DNA from: Lacihabitans soyangensis | Lineage (GTDB): Bacteria > Bacteroidota > Bacteroidia > Cytophagales > Spirosomataceae | Direction of reading: 5' to 3' | DNA: 64,000 nt | Assembly: GCF_024343775.1 (NCBI RefSeq) | Contig: NZ_RJUF01000003.1 | Location: 124,001 to 188,000, forward strand | In this document: in pieces, positions 1 to 6,800 of the stretch | Layout: the number at the start of each line of letters is the position of its first letter | How positions within the stretch are numbered: the stretch's first letter is position 1 | Program-made: the position numbers and the translations under genes | Notes under the pieces: generated by a model | Told to the model about the DNA's origin: nothing | The model's database searches: none | The model's input: only the letters and a program-made list of their open reading frames with translations

Positions 1-390
1 CTTATTTTAGAATTCATATAATATAAAAGAAGATTATTAATATAAATTATTGTTATTAATTATTATGTCTGTGAATAAGTGGAATACTTTATTTGGTAAA
101 TATAAATGTTTATTTCTTAAGTTTTCTGTGGATAAGTTATTCCTTTATCCACATATAAACGCTTGTTTTTAAGTTTTTTAGCTTTGAATGTTAATTTATT
201 ATTAAATTTAATTAACAAGTTTATTATGCTTTTTGATTGTTTGATTCCTGTTAGTAATTTTCTCTAAGTTGTTAGTTATATTCTTTTATTGGTTATTGTG
301 ACAATATATTCTTGAAACTATGTTTTTAACTTTGATTACCCACGCTTTAATCCACATTTATACGAGGTTTTACACAGGCTTATCCACATG
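1..390. other. candidate replication origin (oriC) with DnaA boxes
   Basis: This gene-free edge is very AT-rich, especially the first 65 bases, which could serve as a DNA-unwinding element. Boxes of the DnaA consensus TTATCCACA are perfect at 127-135 (minus), 145-153 (plus) and 380-388 (plus). TTATTCACA occurs at 70-78 (minus), and a one-mismatch copy TAATCCACA at 348-356 (plus). Five such 9-mers in 390 bases is far above chance. mnmG, a frequent origin neighbour, and two parS sites lie within 4 kb. The element may extend left of the window. Origin function is inferred; no GC-skew was computed. Confidence 0.68.
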
Positions 391-1965
391 TTACTCTATT
401 TTTTGATCTTTTAGTTCAAAATTTGCTCTTACACGAATTGATTCCTTACTTATTAACACTCTTTCGGGTAGTTTTAAAGTTTTAATATTTCCTGGATCCC
501 AAATACCATTCTGGTTTTCATCAAAAATTATTTTAACGAGGTATGAGCCGGGAATGATATTTTTAAAATAAAATTTATTTGTGAATACTTGTGTATCGGT
601 TACTAAGCCAGAATCTTCATTTATCAATTGTGCAATTTTTGTGCCTTTGTCTGTTATTGTATTTCCTTCCATGGTTCCTAGGTCGTCTGGGCCTAGGATG
701 GGATTTTTTATTGCAAAGATGGAATTGGTATCGCCCTTATAATTTTCAAGGATGTTGGAAGGAAATATTATCTCAGTTTGTTGCTTGGCTTTGGTAGTTA
801 GGCTGACTTCAAGATTATTTTTGGATATCCATTTATAATTTGGTTTTTCAATTTGTAACGTGTCTGTTTTGAAAATGACCTTGGAAGAATCAAATCTAGT
901 TATGGGATATTGAAATAGAAAATTGAATTTTAAGTTTTTGGTGAGTTCTTGTCCATTTTTAATATTACTGTTAGCAGTGAAGCTTTGTATTTTTCTTTTA
1001 GTTTTTAGAGGTGATGAAAAATAGATCTTTTGGCTGATGGTGTCGGAAATATTCAGTGAATCGGTAAGAATTATTTGTGTTAATGTGGTATCTGTTTTGG
1101 GTGAAGAAAGTTTGAAAACATTTATGTTCAGTTTATCATAATTATAGACCAAGGCACTGTCCTGAATATTTATACTCGCAGATTTAATAGGTTTGTCTAA
1201 TTGTAATACAAACTCACTTTCCCTACTTATACTTTTTTTGATTCTGTTTTTTGTAAAGTTAGCTGAATAGGTTTCGAGTGTGTCTATGGTTTTATTTTGA
1301 TTTAAGACAATGGAGTCTTTCTTGAATGCAATGTTTTCATTTTTTTGGTCATATAGGAGATTTTGATTTTTATCCGTAAAGGCCATCAAGAAATATTTAT
1401 CAGCTTTTATGTTTTCAAATTCATATTTACCTGAAGAATCGGTTTTTATAAAGTAGTCTGGTTTCTTTTTGCCGAATGGTATAGTGTCTTTCTTGTAAAG
1501 TCCTACAAGGGCGTCTAAAACAGGCTGCTTGTTCTGTAGGTCTATTATCGTCCCTGTTAGCTTGAGAGAGTCTATTTCTGGGCCTGTGCTAAATACTATC
1601 TTGAGGTTTTTACTAGGGTTTCTTTCGCTCAAATCTTTAATACCATTTCTGAAGTTAAATGTGTAGGTGGTACTATCAGCGAAGTCTTTATCAAAGATTA
1701 GTTTAACGTTTTTATCCTTTTGTTTTATAACGTACAAGGAATTGGGATCAGGAATAATAAGGAGCTCTTGTTTGAGTGCCGTTATATCTATGTACTCATC
1801 GAATTCCATGTTAATTGTCCTCCCCTTGAAGTTTTTGGTTTTTGAGACAGGATCTGAACCCAATAGTTTTGGTTCTGCTTGGTCGGTGGGTCCGCCTGTT
1901 GGTGGAACAAACTGAGCACAGCCATAAAAGATGTAAGATATGAATAGAATTATTAGGTATCTCAT
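391..1965 (-). CDS. Ig-like domain lipoprotein
   Basis: A 524-residue exported protein. The N-terminus has a lipoprotein-type signal ending in YGC near residue 16. It is followed by the PPTGGPxD...P segment and a bacterial Ig-like (SbsA-type) domain around residues 25-130, a combination typical of a conserved Bacteroidota surface lipoprotein family. A carboxypeptidase-regulatory or CNA-B-like beta domain follows at about 135-215 (GTIIDLQNKQPV start), and the C-terminus has a DENQNGIWDPG motif resembling a calcium-binding loop. The start overlaps the mnmG stop by 4 bases, so translation is probably coupled. The family's function is not established; an envelope-structural role is a guess. Confidence 0.8.
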   Translation of the reverse strand: MRYLIILFISYIFYGCAQFVPPTGGPTDQAEPKLLGSDPVSKTKNFKGRTINMEFDEYIDITALKQELLIIPDPNSLYVIKQKDKNVKLIFDKDFADSTTYTFNFRNGIKDLSERNPSKNLKIVFSTGPEIDSLKLTGTIIDLQNKQPVLDALVGLYKKDTIPFGKKKPDYFIKTDSSGKYEFENIKADKYFLMAFTDKNQNLLYDQKNENIAFKKDSIVLNQNKTIDTLETYSANFTKNRIKKSISRESEFVLQLDKPIKSASINIQDSALVYNYDKLNINVFKLSSPKTDTTLTQIILTDSLNISDTISQKIYFSSPLKTKRKIQSFTANSNIKNGQELTKNLKFNFLFQYPITRFDSSKVIFKTDTLQIEKPNYKWISKNNLEVSLTTKAKQQTEIIFPSNILENYKGDTNSIFAIKNPILGPDDLGTMEGNTITDKGTKIAQLINEDSGLVTDTQVFTNKFYFKNIIPGSYLVKIIFDENQNGIWDPGNIKTLKLPERVLISKESIRVRANFELKDQKIE

Positions 1966-3824
1966 CGTCCAAGGTGAAGCATAATAACAGATATATCTGC
2001 AGGTGAAACTCCGCTTATGCGAGAGGCTTGTCCCAAAGTAATGGGTTTTAGTTTTTTTAATTTTTGTCTGGCCTCTATTGAAATAGACTTCAAATTTTCG
2101 TAGTCAAAATCTGGATTGATTTTGAGGTCATCAAACTTGGTAAGTTTCTCGGCAAGGAGTAATTCTTTTTCTATGTATTTTTCGTACTTGATTTTTATTT
2201 CAGTTTGTTCTAATTCGTCTTTGGTATATTCATTTACTATACTTTCAAAAACGCTATTTCCAATTTTAACATTTTCTATATTCAATTCTGGTCTTTTCAA
2301 GAGGTTGTAAAAAGTTGTTTTTTCTCTGATACTTGCCGAGTTATGAGATTCTAAAAACTCGTTTATCTCGTTAGGGTTAATTTTTGTTTCTCCTAAAATT
2401 TTATATAGCTCCTCTGATTTTTCTATTTTCTTTTTGACATTTGTTAGTCTTTCATCAGAAGCTAGACCAATTTCGTGGCCTTTGGCTGTTAGTCTTATAT
2501 CGGCATTGTCCTGTCTTAGAATTGTTCGGAATTCTGCTCGGGAAGTAAACATTCTATATGGTTCTTCGGTACCCTTGTTTACAAGATCATCTATTAATAC
2601 ACCTATATATGCTTCATCACGTTTCAAGATAAAAGTATCAAGTTCGTGTGATTTTCTATGTGCATTTATACCGGCCATTAGTCCTTGGGCACCTGCCTCT
2701 TCATAACCAGTAGTACCATTTATTTGACCTGCAAAAAATAGATTTTCTATGATATGAGTTTCAAGCGTTAGTTTCAACTGAGTAGGTGGAAAGAAATCAT
2801 ACTCTATGGCATAGCCCGGACGTAGCATTTTTATGTTTTCAAACCCAGGAATTTTACGTAAGGCAGAAAATTGGATTTCTTCTGGAAGTGAGGTTGAGAA
2901 TCCATTTACATACATTTCTATGGTTGTTCTTCCCTCGGGTTCCAGAAATATTTGGTGACTATCTTTATCGGCAAATCGGTTTATTTTGTCTTCGACTGAT
3001 GGGCAGTAACGTGGACCGAGTCCTTGGATACGACCGTTAAACATAGGGGATTTATCGAAACCCTTACGGAGTTCGTCGTGAACACTGAGGTTTGTGTAGC
3101 TGATCCAGCAGCTGTTTTGGTTTACAAGCTTTGGTGTATTTGTGTATGAGAACTTCTCTGGATTTTCATCGCCTAGTTGTTCTTCCATTGCCGAGTAGTT
3201 CACAGTACGAGAGTCTACTCTTGGTGGAGTTCCTGTTTTCATTCTACCAGATTCGAAACCTAGGCTTATTAATTGTTCAGTAATTCCAAATGCTGCCGAT
3301 TCACCCGTGCGTCCACCACCGAAGTTTTTTTCACCAATGTGTATTTTGCCATTTAAGAAAGTACCATTTGTCAGGACTACAGATGTCGCTTTTATTTCTA
3401 AACCTAGTGCAGTTTTAACGCCGATTACTATATTATCTTCAATCAAAAGACCAGTAACCATTTCTTGCCAGAACGACACATTTTGATTCTTTTCGAGTTT
3501 ATCTCTCCAGTTTAATGCAAACTCCATCCTGTTCGATTGACACCTAGGTGACCACATTGCAGGACCTTTTGAGCGATTGAGCATTCTGAATTGTATCATT
3601 GTCTCGTCAGATACTATACCCGACATTCCTCCTAGTGCATCTATCTCACGTACTATTTGTCCTTTTGCGACTCCTCCCATTGCTGGGTTACAAGACATCT
3701 GTGCTATGGTTTGAAGGTTCATAGTTATAAGTAAAACTTTTGAACCCATTGTGGCGGCTGCATGAGCGGCTTCACAGCCGGCATGTCCCGCTCCTACTAC
3801 TATTACATCGTATTTTTCGAACAT
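1962..3824 (-). CDS. mnmG: tRNA uridine-5-carboxymethylaminomethyl modification enzyme MnmG (GidA)
   Basis: The FAD-binding subunit of the MnmE-MnmG complex, which installs the cmnm5 group on U34 of certain tRNAs in the cytoplasm. The Rossmann FAD motif VGAGHAGCEAA is at residues 8-18 of this start. The conserved SCNPAMGG segment, the FAGQINGTTGYEEAGAQGL signature and the C-terminal helical MnmE-binding region (ending near PADISVIMLHLGR) are all present. I chose the ATG at 3824, giving about 620 residues starting MFEKYDVIVVGAG, as in the family. A longer frame from 3854 would add ten residues (MHVSRETQIY) that merely translate the parS palindrome. No clear Shine-Dalgarno is visible, as is usual in Bacteroidota. 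Confidence 0.97.
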   Translation of the reverse strand: MFEKYDVIVVGAGHAGCEAAHAAATMGSKVLLITMNLQTIAQMSCNPAMGGVAKGQIVREIDALGGMSGIVSDETMIQFRMLNRSKGPAMWSPRCQSNRMEFALNWRDKLEKNQNVSFWQEMVTGLLIEDNIVIGVKTALGLEIKATSVVLTNGTFLNGKIHIGEKNFGGGRTGESAAFGITEQLISLGFESGRMKTGTPPRVDSRTVNYSAMEEQLGDENPEKFSYTNTPKLVNQNSCWISYTNLSVHDELRKGFDKSPMFNGRIQGLGPRYCPSVEDKINRFADKDSHQIFLEPEGRTTIEMYVNGFSTSLPEEIQFSALRKIPGFENIKMLRPGYAIEYDFFPPTQLKLTLETHIIENLFFAGQINGTTGYEEAGAQGLMAGINAHRKSHELDTFILKRDEAYIGVLIDDLVNKGTEEPYRMFTSRAEFRTILRQDNADIRLTAKGHEIGLASDERLTNVKKKIEKSEELYKILGETKINPNEINEFLESHNSASIREKTTFYNLLKRPELNIENVKIGNSVFESIVNEYTKDELEQTEIKIKYEKYIEKELLLAEKLTKFDDLKINPDFDYENLKSISIEARQKLKKLKPITLGQASRISGVSPADISVIMLHLGR

Positions 3825-3833
3825 ATATATTTG

Positions 3834-3849
3834 TGTTTCACGTGAAACA
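3834..3849. promoter_or_regulatory. parS site 1 (ParB-binding centromere)
   Basis: The 16-base palindrome TGTTTCACGTGAAACA matches the conserved bacterial parS consensus perfectly. It lies 10 bases upstream of the mnmG start. ParB loads at such sites and, with ParA and SMC, segregates newly replicated origins; parS normally clusters near oriC. Confidence 0.92.
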
Positions 3850-3859
3850 TGCACGTAAT

Positions 3860-3875
3860 AGTTTCACGTGAAACA
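3860..3875. promoter_or_regulatory. parS site 2 (ParB-binding centromere)
   Basis: AGTTTCACGTGAAACA matches the parS consensus at 15 of 16 positions. Its centre is 26 bases from that of the perfect site, and both fit in the 55-base gap between the DUF4175 stop and the mnmG start. Confidence 0.88.
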
Positions 3876-3879
3876 TTTA

Positions 3880-6800
3880 TTAATTGATTCTTTTGAAATA
3901 ACTATCTGTTTGTTTTTTATAGAAAGGCGTAAAGTTTGGAGGTGTAGTTCTTAGTAATTCCACCTGTTTTTCTTTTTCCTTTCTGAACTTTTCAAGGTCT
4001 GGTGGGCTGACACGATTAAATGTAACACCAGTATTTGATTTACGTTTCGCGTCTAACTCTTGTTCTTTTATAGCTTTTTCGGCTTCAAGAAGTCTGATTT
4101 CAATTTCCTTTTGACGCTTAAGTAGATTAGGTGTGATACGTTTGTTTACCAAATCGTTTTCACTCTCATCCATTTTCTTTTGTATTTCTTCAAGGTTATT
4201 ACCCATTTTTTTACCTTGCTCAGTACCATTCATTTGCTCCTGTAGGTCTTTCAACTGTTTTCTGATCTTCGCTTGCTCGTTGGCTATTTTGGCTAATTCC
4301 TCAGACATCTGTTTTCCGCCTTGACCCGATTGTCCCAGGCCTTGAATTTTTTTGTTAAGTTCCTGTTGTTTTTGGCCCATGCCATCACTTGGAGCATTGC
4401 CATCTTTTCCACCTTTTCCAGAGCCTGGCATAGACATGGCCATCATTTGTTGCATTTGTTTAAAGGTATCTCCCAACATCAAGGCTAGATTATTCATCGA
4501 TGTCATTGAGAATTGTTGTTTGGATGCGGCCTGTGGTGTTTTACGCTCTTTGATGAATTTCACAGACTCGTCAATGCTATTTTTCATATCCGTTACTTCT
4601 TTGGTTATGAAAGATTCTATTTGCATTACACGTTTGGCTAGTGAGTAAAGGGAGTCTTCTACTACTTTTGCATCGTCAGAGATTTTCAATTGTTCCTGCG
4701 AGAGAGAGACAAACCGAGGGTCAGAAACCGAAATTGATCGGAAGTTTTTCATTACTCTTTCTTGGTCATGTGATACTTTTAGAAGGTTTTCCAGAATATC
4801 TCTTAAGGCATCTATGTCAAGGTCAAGTTGTTTCATCTCTCCTTCTTGCATGCTTTCGGCCATTTGAGCTGCCATGTTACGCATTGATTTCGAAGCCTTC
4901 TTTTGAGCCTTACTAGCGGCTTTGTTATCTTTGTTCTCCATCTCCTTTTGAGCTTTTTTCTGCTCTTCAGAGACTTCTTTTTGGTCTTCCTTTTGTGTGT
5001 CTACATCTTTCTTAAGTTCTTTACTCAGTTTTTCTATGTCTTTTAGTTTTTCTTTTTTCTCCTCAAACTCCTTGTTTAGTTTTTCTTGTTCCTTCTTTAG
5101 TTCTTCGTTTTTTGGCGATTCTTTGTTTTCTTTATCGGTTTTTTCAGCCAACTCTTCTTGTTTATCAGCAAGTTTTTCTAGTTCTTTTACCGTCTCTTGT
5201 ACTTTTTGTTTAAGTTGTAAATCTTTAAAGAGCTTCATGGTGCGGTCTATCTCCTTATCTATATTTCTTTGGTCTTTTTTGAAGTCATTCATTTTATCCA
5301 AAGATTTTTCATTAAGCTGTTCCTCCATCATTTTTTTCAGATCTTCTAATACTTTACTTTCCTCACTTTTCATGAGTTCGTCTAGCATCTTTTGTAGGAG
5401 ATCCATTTTCTGCTGTAATTCTGGACTTTGTTTGTCAAACCTATTTTGCTTTTCTTTGAGATCTTCTAATTGTTTTTGAAGATCTTTAAGTTCCTTCATC
5501 ATTTCGTCTTTCTTTTTCAACAGATCCTCAAACTCTTTTTTGTCTTGAAAATCCATTTCTTTTTTCTTCTTTAAATCGGCTTCAAGGTTTTCAAGAGCCT
5601 TTTTAAATTCCTTGGACTTTTGAAGTAAATCCTCAAACTTATCTTCTGTTTTTTCTATTTGTTTTTCTACCTCTTGGTCAAACTGCTGGGCTGTTGGCAT
5701 TCCAAAAACCATAGTACCCGACTTAGTAGATTTACGGCCATTTACGCCATCGTTGTCAGTAACTTGGAGATAATATTCTAGTTTATCACTTTTTTCTAAG
5801 CCAAGATTGTTGATGTTTACTTGATAAAAGAATGTTTGTGAAAGAGATGTTTTGTTGAATGGAATATCTACTGCCTTAAAGGGCGTATTGCCCGATTTGG
5901 TGCGGTACATAAATTTAAAATCAGAAAGGCCGTAATCATCTGTTATGCTCCCTCCTATTCCGATATAATTGTAAAGACTGCTGTCTTTTATTTGTTCAAA
6001 GCTTATCTGCGGGTACTTGTCAGGTATTACATTGATGTAATAAGAAATTTTGTCTGCGTTGGTGGTAGCATTTTTGTTTTTTAGGAGTACCTCGTAGTTT
6101 TGGGACTTTGCAAATCTTTTTTGAAAGTTGAAGTCTGTTATTAGACCTTTAGAAACTTTTAGAGGTTTTGAGCCTTCAAAAATTACATTCAATGAATCGG
6201 CTTCGTCAGTTTTGAATTTCCACTCCACAACGGTTCCTTCTGGCACTATGAGGTTACCAACGTTGTCAAAATCTTCTGAAGTTTTGTTTAAGTAAGCTGG
6301 ATATTTTAGCTGAACATTGAACGACAATAAACTTGGCCTGGCTATCATACCGAGCTTGAAAGTGTTCGAAGTAAATCCGCCCGCAAGAAAGTGGAATTCG
6401 GTTTCTTCCTGAACTTTGGAAAATACGAAATCAAAGTTTCTTGGGTCTTTGAGGTTCATTTTGTATTTTCTGTCATTATAGACTAGGAATACATCTTCAG
6501 GAAGGGAATTGCCTATCAGTTTCAAGTTTAGTTGATAGTCTTCGTTTTTTACTGCTTGTAGATTTTTGTTCAAGATTTCGAACTGAAATGGAGCAGGCTC
6601 GGCGAAGTTGCGTTTGAAATATACGATACGTTCTGTACTCTTGAAAAAGGATGGAGCTATCGCAGAGATTAATAAAATTGCCAGTAGTGGTGGCAATGCA
6701 TATTTAAGATATTTTTTGTTTTCCTGTAGATTTATGGCATCTGCAAATTTGACCAACTTAAGTTCTTTGGTTTTCTGTGCGATGCTGGCTTCTAAAAGTG

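What the first reader, a model, noticed from the sequence alone, without database searches (positions are those of the whole stretch)
1..390. Probable chromosomal replication origin at the left edge
Five DnaA-box-like 9-mers, three of them perfect TTATCCACA, lie in 390 AT-rich gene-free bases, and mnmG and parS are 2-4 kb away. The region shows directly; that it is oriC is inference. The first 65 bases are almost all A/T, as an unwinding element would be.
Basis: partly seen in the sequence, partly recalled or inferred. Interest (0 to 1): 0.7.

Follow-up and report, generated by a model that had tools for sequence, protein, structure and literature searches.

The report
Chromosome replication origin in freshwater bacterium
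This 373-base stretch between two genes is very probably the place where the chromosome of a Lacihabitans-like bacterium starts to replicate; it is a new example of an ordinary kind of element, notable mainly because it lies far from the dnaA gene that is often used to mark the start.

Summary
Window 18-390 is gene-free and holds five DnaA boxes with at most one mismatch, three of them perfect; of the 53 perfect boxes in the 5.65-Mb genome no other three lie within 400 bp. GC3 skew corrected for gene orientation turns from minus to plus around this locus on the window's own contig, on long contigs of two congeners, and on a closed congener chromosome, whose second switch lies at the antipode. 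The first ~60 bases are the least stable 60-bp stretch of the 193-kb contig. In ten of ten genus members read, the gap keeps its two flanking genes and a length of 376-401 bp, and its box columns are conserved above background. The genome's only two exact parS 14-mers lie 3.4 kb away. dnaA is elsewhere: in the closed congener it lies 1.18 Mb from this locus, with no box cluster. Weak points: no experiment; DnaA-trios not above chance; the closed congener's gap has only two good boxes; skew in G028, of another family, does not fit. Verdict: oriC, a new member of a known kind.

The parts
18..390. Intergenic region proposed as oriC (373 bp between ORFs; 376 bp between the two protein matches, which leave out a stop codon)
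18..66 (.). Candidate DNA unwinding element: 46 of 49 bases A/T; the least stable 60-bp stretch of the 193-kb contig starts at window 3-6
70..78 (-). DnaA box TTATTCACA (1 mismatch), the member next to the AT-rich stretch of a co-oriented pair
78..86 (-). Weaker box-like 9-mer TATTCCACT (3 mismatches), overlapping the previous box by one base; the same layout is present in ten of ten genus members, each 9-mer with 1-3 mismatches; no chance control was run for the pair
127..135 (-). DnaA box, perfect TTATCCACA; mean column identity 0.86 in the genus
145..153 (+). DnaA box, perfect; inverted relative to the box at 127
336..344 (+). Possible weak box TTACCCACG (2 mismatches)
348..356 (+). DnaA box TAATCCACA (1 mismatch); the least conserved of the five (0.60)
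368..376 (+). Possible weak box TTTTACACA (2 mismatches)
380..388 (+). DnaA box, perfect; the most conserved 9-mer of the gap in the genus (0.88)
1..17 (-). First codons of the left neighbour, a 601-aa TPR-repeat protein that continues left (L010:2212-4017)
391..1965 (-). Right neighbour, a protein with a Big_5 (bacterial Ig-like) domain, 524 aa
1962..3854 (-). mnmG/gidA ORF; an ATG at 3824 fits the start of the congener's protein better than the GTG at 3854
3834..3849 (.). parS-like palindrome TGTTTCACGTGAAACA
3860..3875 (.). Second parS-like palindrome, 1 mismatch in the 16-mer, perfect inner 14-mer

Best explanation
Window 18-390 is the chromosomal origin oriC of this bacterium. Inferred mechanism: DnaA, encoded on another contig, binds the boxes at 127(-), 145(+), 348(+) and 380(+) and a co-oriented overlapping pair at 70/78(-), and forms an oligomer from the pair into the adjacent AT-rich stretch (about 18-66). 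The strands separate there, and two forks leave in opposite directions. ParB then uses the two parS sites 3.4 kb away to segregate the new origins. Shown from sequence: the boxes, the AT-rich unstable stretch, their conservation, the skew switch around the locus, and parS nearby. Inferred: DnaA binding, melting, helicase loading and ParB action.
For: Box cluster far above shuffles and the only triple of perfect boxes within 400 bp in the genome. Own contig, 12-kb bins of GC3 skew corrected for gene orientation: negative in 8 of the 9 bins before 108 kb, +0.001 in the next, not estimable in the bin holding the locus at 124 kb (no plus-strand ORFs), positive in all 6 after it, of which the last has no plus-strand ORFs. 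Closed congener G007: 9 of 10 sampled stretches left of the gap are negative (the exception has no minus-strand ORF) and 9 of 10 right are positive; the best-fitting origin interval contains the gap and the terminus is antipodal. G003: 13 of 13 bins left of the gap negative, 5 of 6 right positive, although the flanking genes are reversed in that contig; G001: switch between 100 and 136 kb, gap at 115 kb. G013, where the Ig-like gene lies 2.3 Mb away, has its best origin at or right of the TPR gene, with 10 boxes in 900 bp there. Gene pair with a gap under 1 kb in 27 of 39 genomes; box counts above all 200 shuffles in 20 of the 23 gaps read. Box columns 0.78 identical against 0.51 elsewhere, 0 of 375 circular shifts as high. 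In the 14 of 39 genomes with an exact parS 14-mer, every copy lies on the contig of the Ig-like gene and within 9 kb of it.
Against: No experiment. Skew resolves only about 20-30 kb. In G007 the gap has only 2 boxes with at most one mismatch, below the shuffle maximum of 3, while 6 lie in 600 bp inside the DUF4175 gene 5 kb away. G027 has no box with at most one mismatch in the gap, and G033 has 2, equal to its shuffle maximum. In G028 (another family) the best skew origin is 4.2-4.7 Mb, not the gap at 3.67 Mb, though skew there is weak and the gap has 13 boxes. In G001 three of the four bins farthest right of the gap are negative again. DnaA-trios are not above chance. Another AT-rich stretch at C3 about 20.7 kb is slightly less stable than the locus at 40, 100, 200 and 373 bp.
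Confidence: 0.93

Rival explanations
1. The origin is near, but initiation occurs elsewhere within the same ~10-20 kb (for example in the DUF4175/parS region), and this gap is an accessory DnaA-binding part of it.
For: Skew cannot separate sites this close. In G007 a looser scatter of 6 boxes lies in the DUF4175 gene.
Against: In G007 those boxes are inside a coding sequence; in the window the same gene has one box with at most one mismatch, at 5294. The gap has the least stable 60 bp of the contig, a conserved length and conserved box columns. In G013 the TPR side alone keeps boxes, close to the skew switch, with the Ig-like gene elsewhere.
Confidence: 0.05
2. The origin is beside dnaA, as in many bacteria, and this cluster is a DnaA-titrating or regulatory site (datA- or DARS-like).
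For: Many bacteria keep oriC at dnaA, and box clusters can have regulatory roles (both recalled).
Against: The 12 kb around dnaA in this genome has 4 boxes with at most one mismatch, none within 400 bp of another; the closed congener has 2 in 15.7 kb. GC3 skew there shows no minus-to-plus switch at dnaA: +0.078 at 3.89 Mb, +0.053 at dnaA (resting on little minus-strand sequence), -0.024 at 0.2 Mb, +0.250 at 0.41 Mb.
Confidence: 0.01
3. The cluster is the control region of the neighbouring genes, DnaA acting as a transcription factor, with no replication role.
For: The gap lies directly upstream of the TPR gene.
Against: It does not explain the skew switches, the parS neighbourhood or the AT-rich stretch.
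Confidence: 0.01

Closest known systems
Bacterial DnaA-dependent oriC in general, as catalogued by DoriC and Ori-Finder (PMC6323995 and PMC10225481: search listing and start of abstract only)
   Same: Intergenic, DnaA-box cluster, AT-rich unwinding element, at the skew minimum
   Different: Not beside dnaA; neighbours are a TPR-protein gene and an Ig-like protein gene. Whether DoriC lists the relatives' origins could not be looked up
Basal unwinding system (BUS) of Bacillus subtilis oriC (PMC8287927: abstract, search-program section, part 1 of 2 of results; PMC10721633 and PMC6669920: passages)
   Same: A co-oriented pair of box-like 9-mers directly beside the AT-rich element; PMC8235120 (passages) says that B. 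subtilis boxes 6/7 and H. pylori ts1/ts2 are fused or overlap, as here
   Different: DnaA-trios are not above chance in any of the ten genus members, the window included; the spacer reads GACA rather than a GC cluster; one 9-mer of the pair is weak (3 mismatches in the window)
E. coli oriC (recalled)
   Same: mnmG (gidA) close by; boxes in both orientations with an AT-rich stretch at one end
   Different: The Ig-like gene lies between mnmG and the gap, parS sites are present; IHF and Fis sites were not tested
Chromosomal ParABS near oriC (PMC7022226: start of abstract only)
   Same: parS-like palindrome (consensus recalled) a few kb from oriC
   Different: The parB-family genes found are on other contigs, and about 0.7 and 1.9 Mb from the gap in the closed congener

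Membership tests
Bacterial chromosomal oriC | Cluster of DnaA boxes beyond chance | tested here: met
   5 with at most 1 mismatch, shuffle mean 0.126; 3 perfect, none of 2000 shuffles; only such triple in the genome
Bacterial chromosomal oriC | AT-rich, easily melted element beside the boxes | tested here: met
   By sequence only: least stable 60 bp of the 193-kb contig; in the TPR-side quarter of the gap in 20 of 23 gaps
Bacterial chromosomal oriC | Minus-to-plus skew switch at the site | tested here: met
   Own contig and G007, G003 and G001; not at the site in G028 of another family
Bacterial chromosomal oriC | dnaA present in the genome | tested here: met
   One Bac_DnaA match on contig C12
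Bacterial chromosomal oriC | Start of replication in vivo; DnaA binding and melting | not testable with these tools
   Needs marker-frequency sequencing, footprinting or P1 assays
BUS-type origin | Co-oriented box pair beside the unwinding element | tested here: inconclusive
   Window 70-78 and 78-86, minus strand; same register in ten of ten genus members, 1-3 mismatches per 9-mer, overlapping by one base; no chance control was run for the pair
BUS-type origin | Three or more DnaA-trios within 16 bp of a box, more than chance | tested here: not met
   Three or more occur beside the pair in 6 of 10 genus members, but shuffles do as well (fraction of shuffles at or above observed 0.15 to 1.0; 0.94 for the whole gap of the window)
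dnaA-linked origin | oriC beside dnaA | tested here: not met
   dnaA on another contig; 1.18 Mb from the gap in the closed congener
Chromosomal ParABS | parS consensus near oriC and a parB gene in the genome | tested here: met
   Two parS, the only exact 14-mers in the genome; two parB-family matches over the cut-off
Chromosomal ParABS | ParB binds these sites | not testable with these tools
   Needs ChIP or binding assay

The most novel reading that the evidence does not exclude
This group of Bacteroidota opens its origin with an overlapping DnaA-box pair feeding into a conserved TAA/CAA-rich element that does not follow the DnaA-trio code, that is, a different single-strand engagement rule from the BUS, in an origin that lies away from dnaA but keeps its TPR-gene and Ig-like-gene neighbourhood.
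Probability: 0.1. Interest if true: 0.5.

Novelty: new member of a known kind. Interest (0 to 1): 0.3.

Why it matters
It fixes where replication very probably starts in Lacihabitans-like genomes and gives a gene-order landmark (TPR gene - origin - Ig-like gene, adjacent in 27 of 39 genomes) for finding origins in draft genomes of related Bacteroidota. That matters for growth-rate estimates from coverage and for orienting assemblies: the closed congener record begins at dnaA, about 1.2 Mb from the inferred origin.

Tried and rejected
DnaA-trios by the published rule: candidates exist, but equally many or more in shuffles; not used as support.

An origin beside dnaA: no box cluster and no minus-to-plus skew switch there.

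Other clusters: a pair of perfect boxes at the end of contig C33 lies in two copies of one repeated sequence, judged by eye. Six boxes in the DUF4175 gene of G007 are in coding sequence and not repeated in the window.

Raw GC skew: in G007 7 of 10 left stretches negative and 7 of 10 right positive; in G028 and G033 it seemed to follow gene orientation, so third-position skew of plus and minus ORFs was used instead. G033 then fits only loosely and G028 does not fit.

A first extraction of the gaps read the wrong side for genes on the minus strand; it was redone and one search is not used. The perfect-box list for six relatives was cut by the tool before the end, so only G028 and G033 could be read in full from it.

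Literature: of the papers listed by searches none showed, in title or start of abstract, an origin between these genes in this group; I did not open those on Bacteroidota genomes, and the library holds open-licence papers only.

Full report
Setting. The window is bases 124001-188000 of contig C3 (193,245 bp) in a 5.65-Mb genome of 198 contigs. Same-genus handles G001, G003 and G005 have contigs of exactly the length of records titled Lacihabitans sp. (LS3-19, CCS-44, CS3-21), so the genus is inferred to be Lacihabitans or very near it.

Observation. Five DnaA boxes with at most one mismatch lie in 70-388, three perfect; first-order shuffles of bases 1-390 give 0.126 on average and none of 2000 gave three perfect ones. 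Of 53 perfect boxes in the genome, no other three lie within 400 bp. The gene-free stretch is 18-390; bases 1-17 open a TPR-protein gene running left. The right neighbour has an Ig-like domain (Big_5), then come mnmG, two parS-like palindromes and a DUF4175 gene. The only exact 14-mer parS cores in the genome are these two.

Skew. Cumulative GC skew along C3 falls to about the locus, with a flat floor from about 120 to 140 kb, then rises, with a dip at 172-184 kb that stays above the floor. Because gene orientation also makes skew, I compared third codon positions of plus- and minus-strand ORFs. On C3, 8 of 9 bins before 108 kb are negative, the next is +0.001, the bin with the locus cannot be estimated, and all 6 after it are positive (the last has no plus-strand ORFs). 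In G007, a closed congener, 20 stretches of 20 kb (about 10% of 4.06 Mb) give the best origin between 2.874 and 2.895 Mb and terminus between 0.83 and 1.035 Mb; the orthologous gap is at 2.884 Mb and its antipode at 0.855 Mb. In G003, where the locus is reversed in the contig, 13 of 13 bins before the gap are negative and 5 of 6 after it positive. In G001, 4 of the 5 bins before 100 kb are negative; the two bins touching the gap are positive but rest on under 1 kb of plus-strand ORFs; the next 7 bins are positive; of the last 4, three are negative, one of them without minus-strand ORFs. Outside the genus, G013 puts the origin between 6.624 Mb (centre of the stretch holding its TPR gene) and the record start; G033 fits loosely (1.50-1.66 or, scoring a little lower, 1.76-1.84 Mb, gap at 1.746); G028 does not (4.2-4.7 Mb against 3.67 Mb).

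Gene order and boxes in relatives. Each flanking protein matches in 38 of 39 genomes (own genome included). By coordinates they are adjacent with a gap under 1 kb in 27 of 39: all 10 of the genus, 10 of the family, 7 of the order; in G016 and G019 one partner is a partial match. The other 12 are on different contigs, far apart, partial or missing; G021, with a partial TPR match next door, is counted among these 12. In one search I read 23 of the 27 gaps: 20 have more boxes than any of 200 shuffles; G007, G027 and G033 do not. For the other four (G019, G029, G030, G038) the densest 500 bp of the fetched stretch begins inside the gap or at most 79 bases before it, and in G021 at the end of the Ig-like gene, with 3 to 9 boxes; G027 again shows no cluster in 8 kb. 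In G028 the gap holds the only three perfect boxes within 400 bp among its 77. In named genomes, 14 of 20 loci examined (of 23 found; 3 dropped for lack of upstream sequence) have three or more boxes in the 800 bp upstream of the TPR gene; 6 have two or fewer. G013, without the Ig-like neighbour, has 10 boxes in the 900 bp there.

Conservation. Across ten genus members (own genome included) the gap is 376-401 bp long. Columns of the five boxes average 0.78 identity against 0.51 elsewhere, and none of 375 circular shifts of the box mask reaches this; the perfect boxes at 380 and 127 are the two most conserved 9-mers of the gap, while the box at 348 is poorly kept (0.60).

Unwinding element. By recalled nearest-neighbour energies, the least stable 60 bp in 193 kb starts at window 3-6; at 40, 100, 200 and 373 bp the locus ranks second, behind a stretch near C3 20.7 kb each time. 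In 20 of 23 gaps the least stable 60 bp lies in the first quarter, on the TPR side. Next to it, on the minus strand, is a pair of co-oriented box-like 9-mers overlapping by one base, in the same register in ten of ten genus members, with 1-3 mismatches each; no chance control was run for the pair. This resembles the box pair of the B. subtilis basal unwinding system, and PMC8235120 (passages read) says that such pairs are fused or overlap in B. subtilis and H. pylori. DnaA-trios, searched with the general rule of PMC8287927 (section read), are not more frequent than in shuffles. So the layout is BUS-like but the trio part is not shown.

dnaA and ParB. dnaA is on contig C12 with no box cluster in 12 kb around it; in G007 dnaA is at base 474 of the record, 1.18 Mb from the gap, without a minus-to-plus switch. 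parB-family genes are also elsewhere. Exact parS cores occur in 14 of 39 genomes, always on the contig of the Ig-like gene and within 9 kb of it. With up to two mismatches in the 16-mer, 5 of 10 further genomes have hits; those in G028 (1 of 4), G033 (1 of 1), G038 (4 of 5) and G014 (1 of 2) lie within about 6 kb of the gap, the one in G032 does not, and the backwards control gives as many or more in G028, G014 and G032, so only G033 and G038 count.

Judgement. It is a new member of a known kind. Open are the melting mechanism and the misfits in G007 (few boxes), G027 (no boxes) and G028 (skew).

Noticed in passing
G007 (closed congener) record start: The closed congener's record has dnaA at base 474, about 1.18 Mb from the inferred origin, so numbering from dnaA misplaces the origin there.
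   Followed up: yes
   Followed up: partly
window 3824-3854: The mnmG ORF called from GTG at 3854 reads through the first parS; the ATG at 3824 matches the start of the congener's MnmG, so parS probably lies just upstream of the gene.
   Followed up: partly
L199 (G000:C33:43001-45458), about 2171 and 2340: Two perfect DnaA boxes sit in two copies of one repeated sequence near the end of a contig, probably a repeat rather than an origin.
   Followed up: partly
L125 (G007:C1:2885001-2905000), 4839-5424: Six DnaA boxes with at most one mismatch in 600 bp inside the DUF4175 gene, not repeated in the window.
   Followed up: partly
window 46-67: An ATTATTGTTATTAATTATTATG stretch beside the box pair is among the most conserved non-box sequence of the gap, with a broken three-base rhythm that gives no trio run above chance.
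   Followed up: partly
C3 about 20.6-20.8 kb (window -103,400) and window 63,800 onward: Other very AT-rich, unstable stretches on the contig, cause unknown.
   Followed up: no
G028:C1: Corrected skew places the origin near 4.2-4.7 Mb while 13 boxes lie in the gap at 3.67 Mb; perhaps an inversion, a moved origin or merely weak skew.
   Followed up: no
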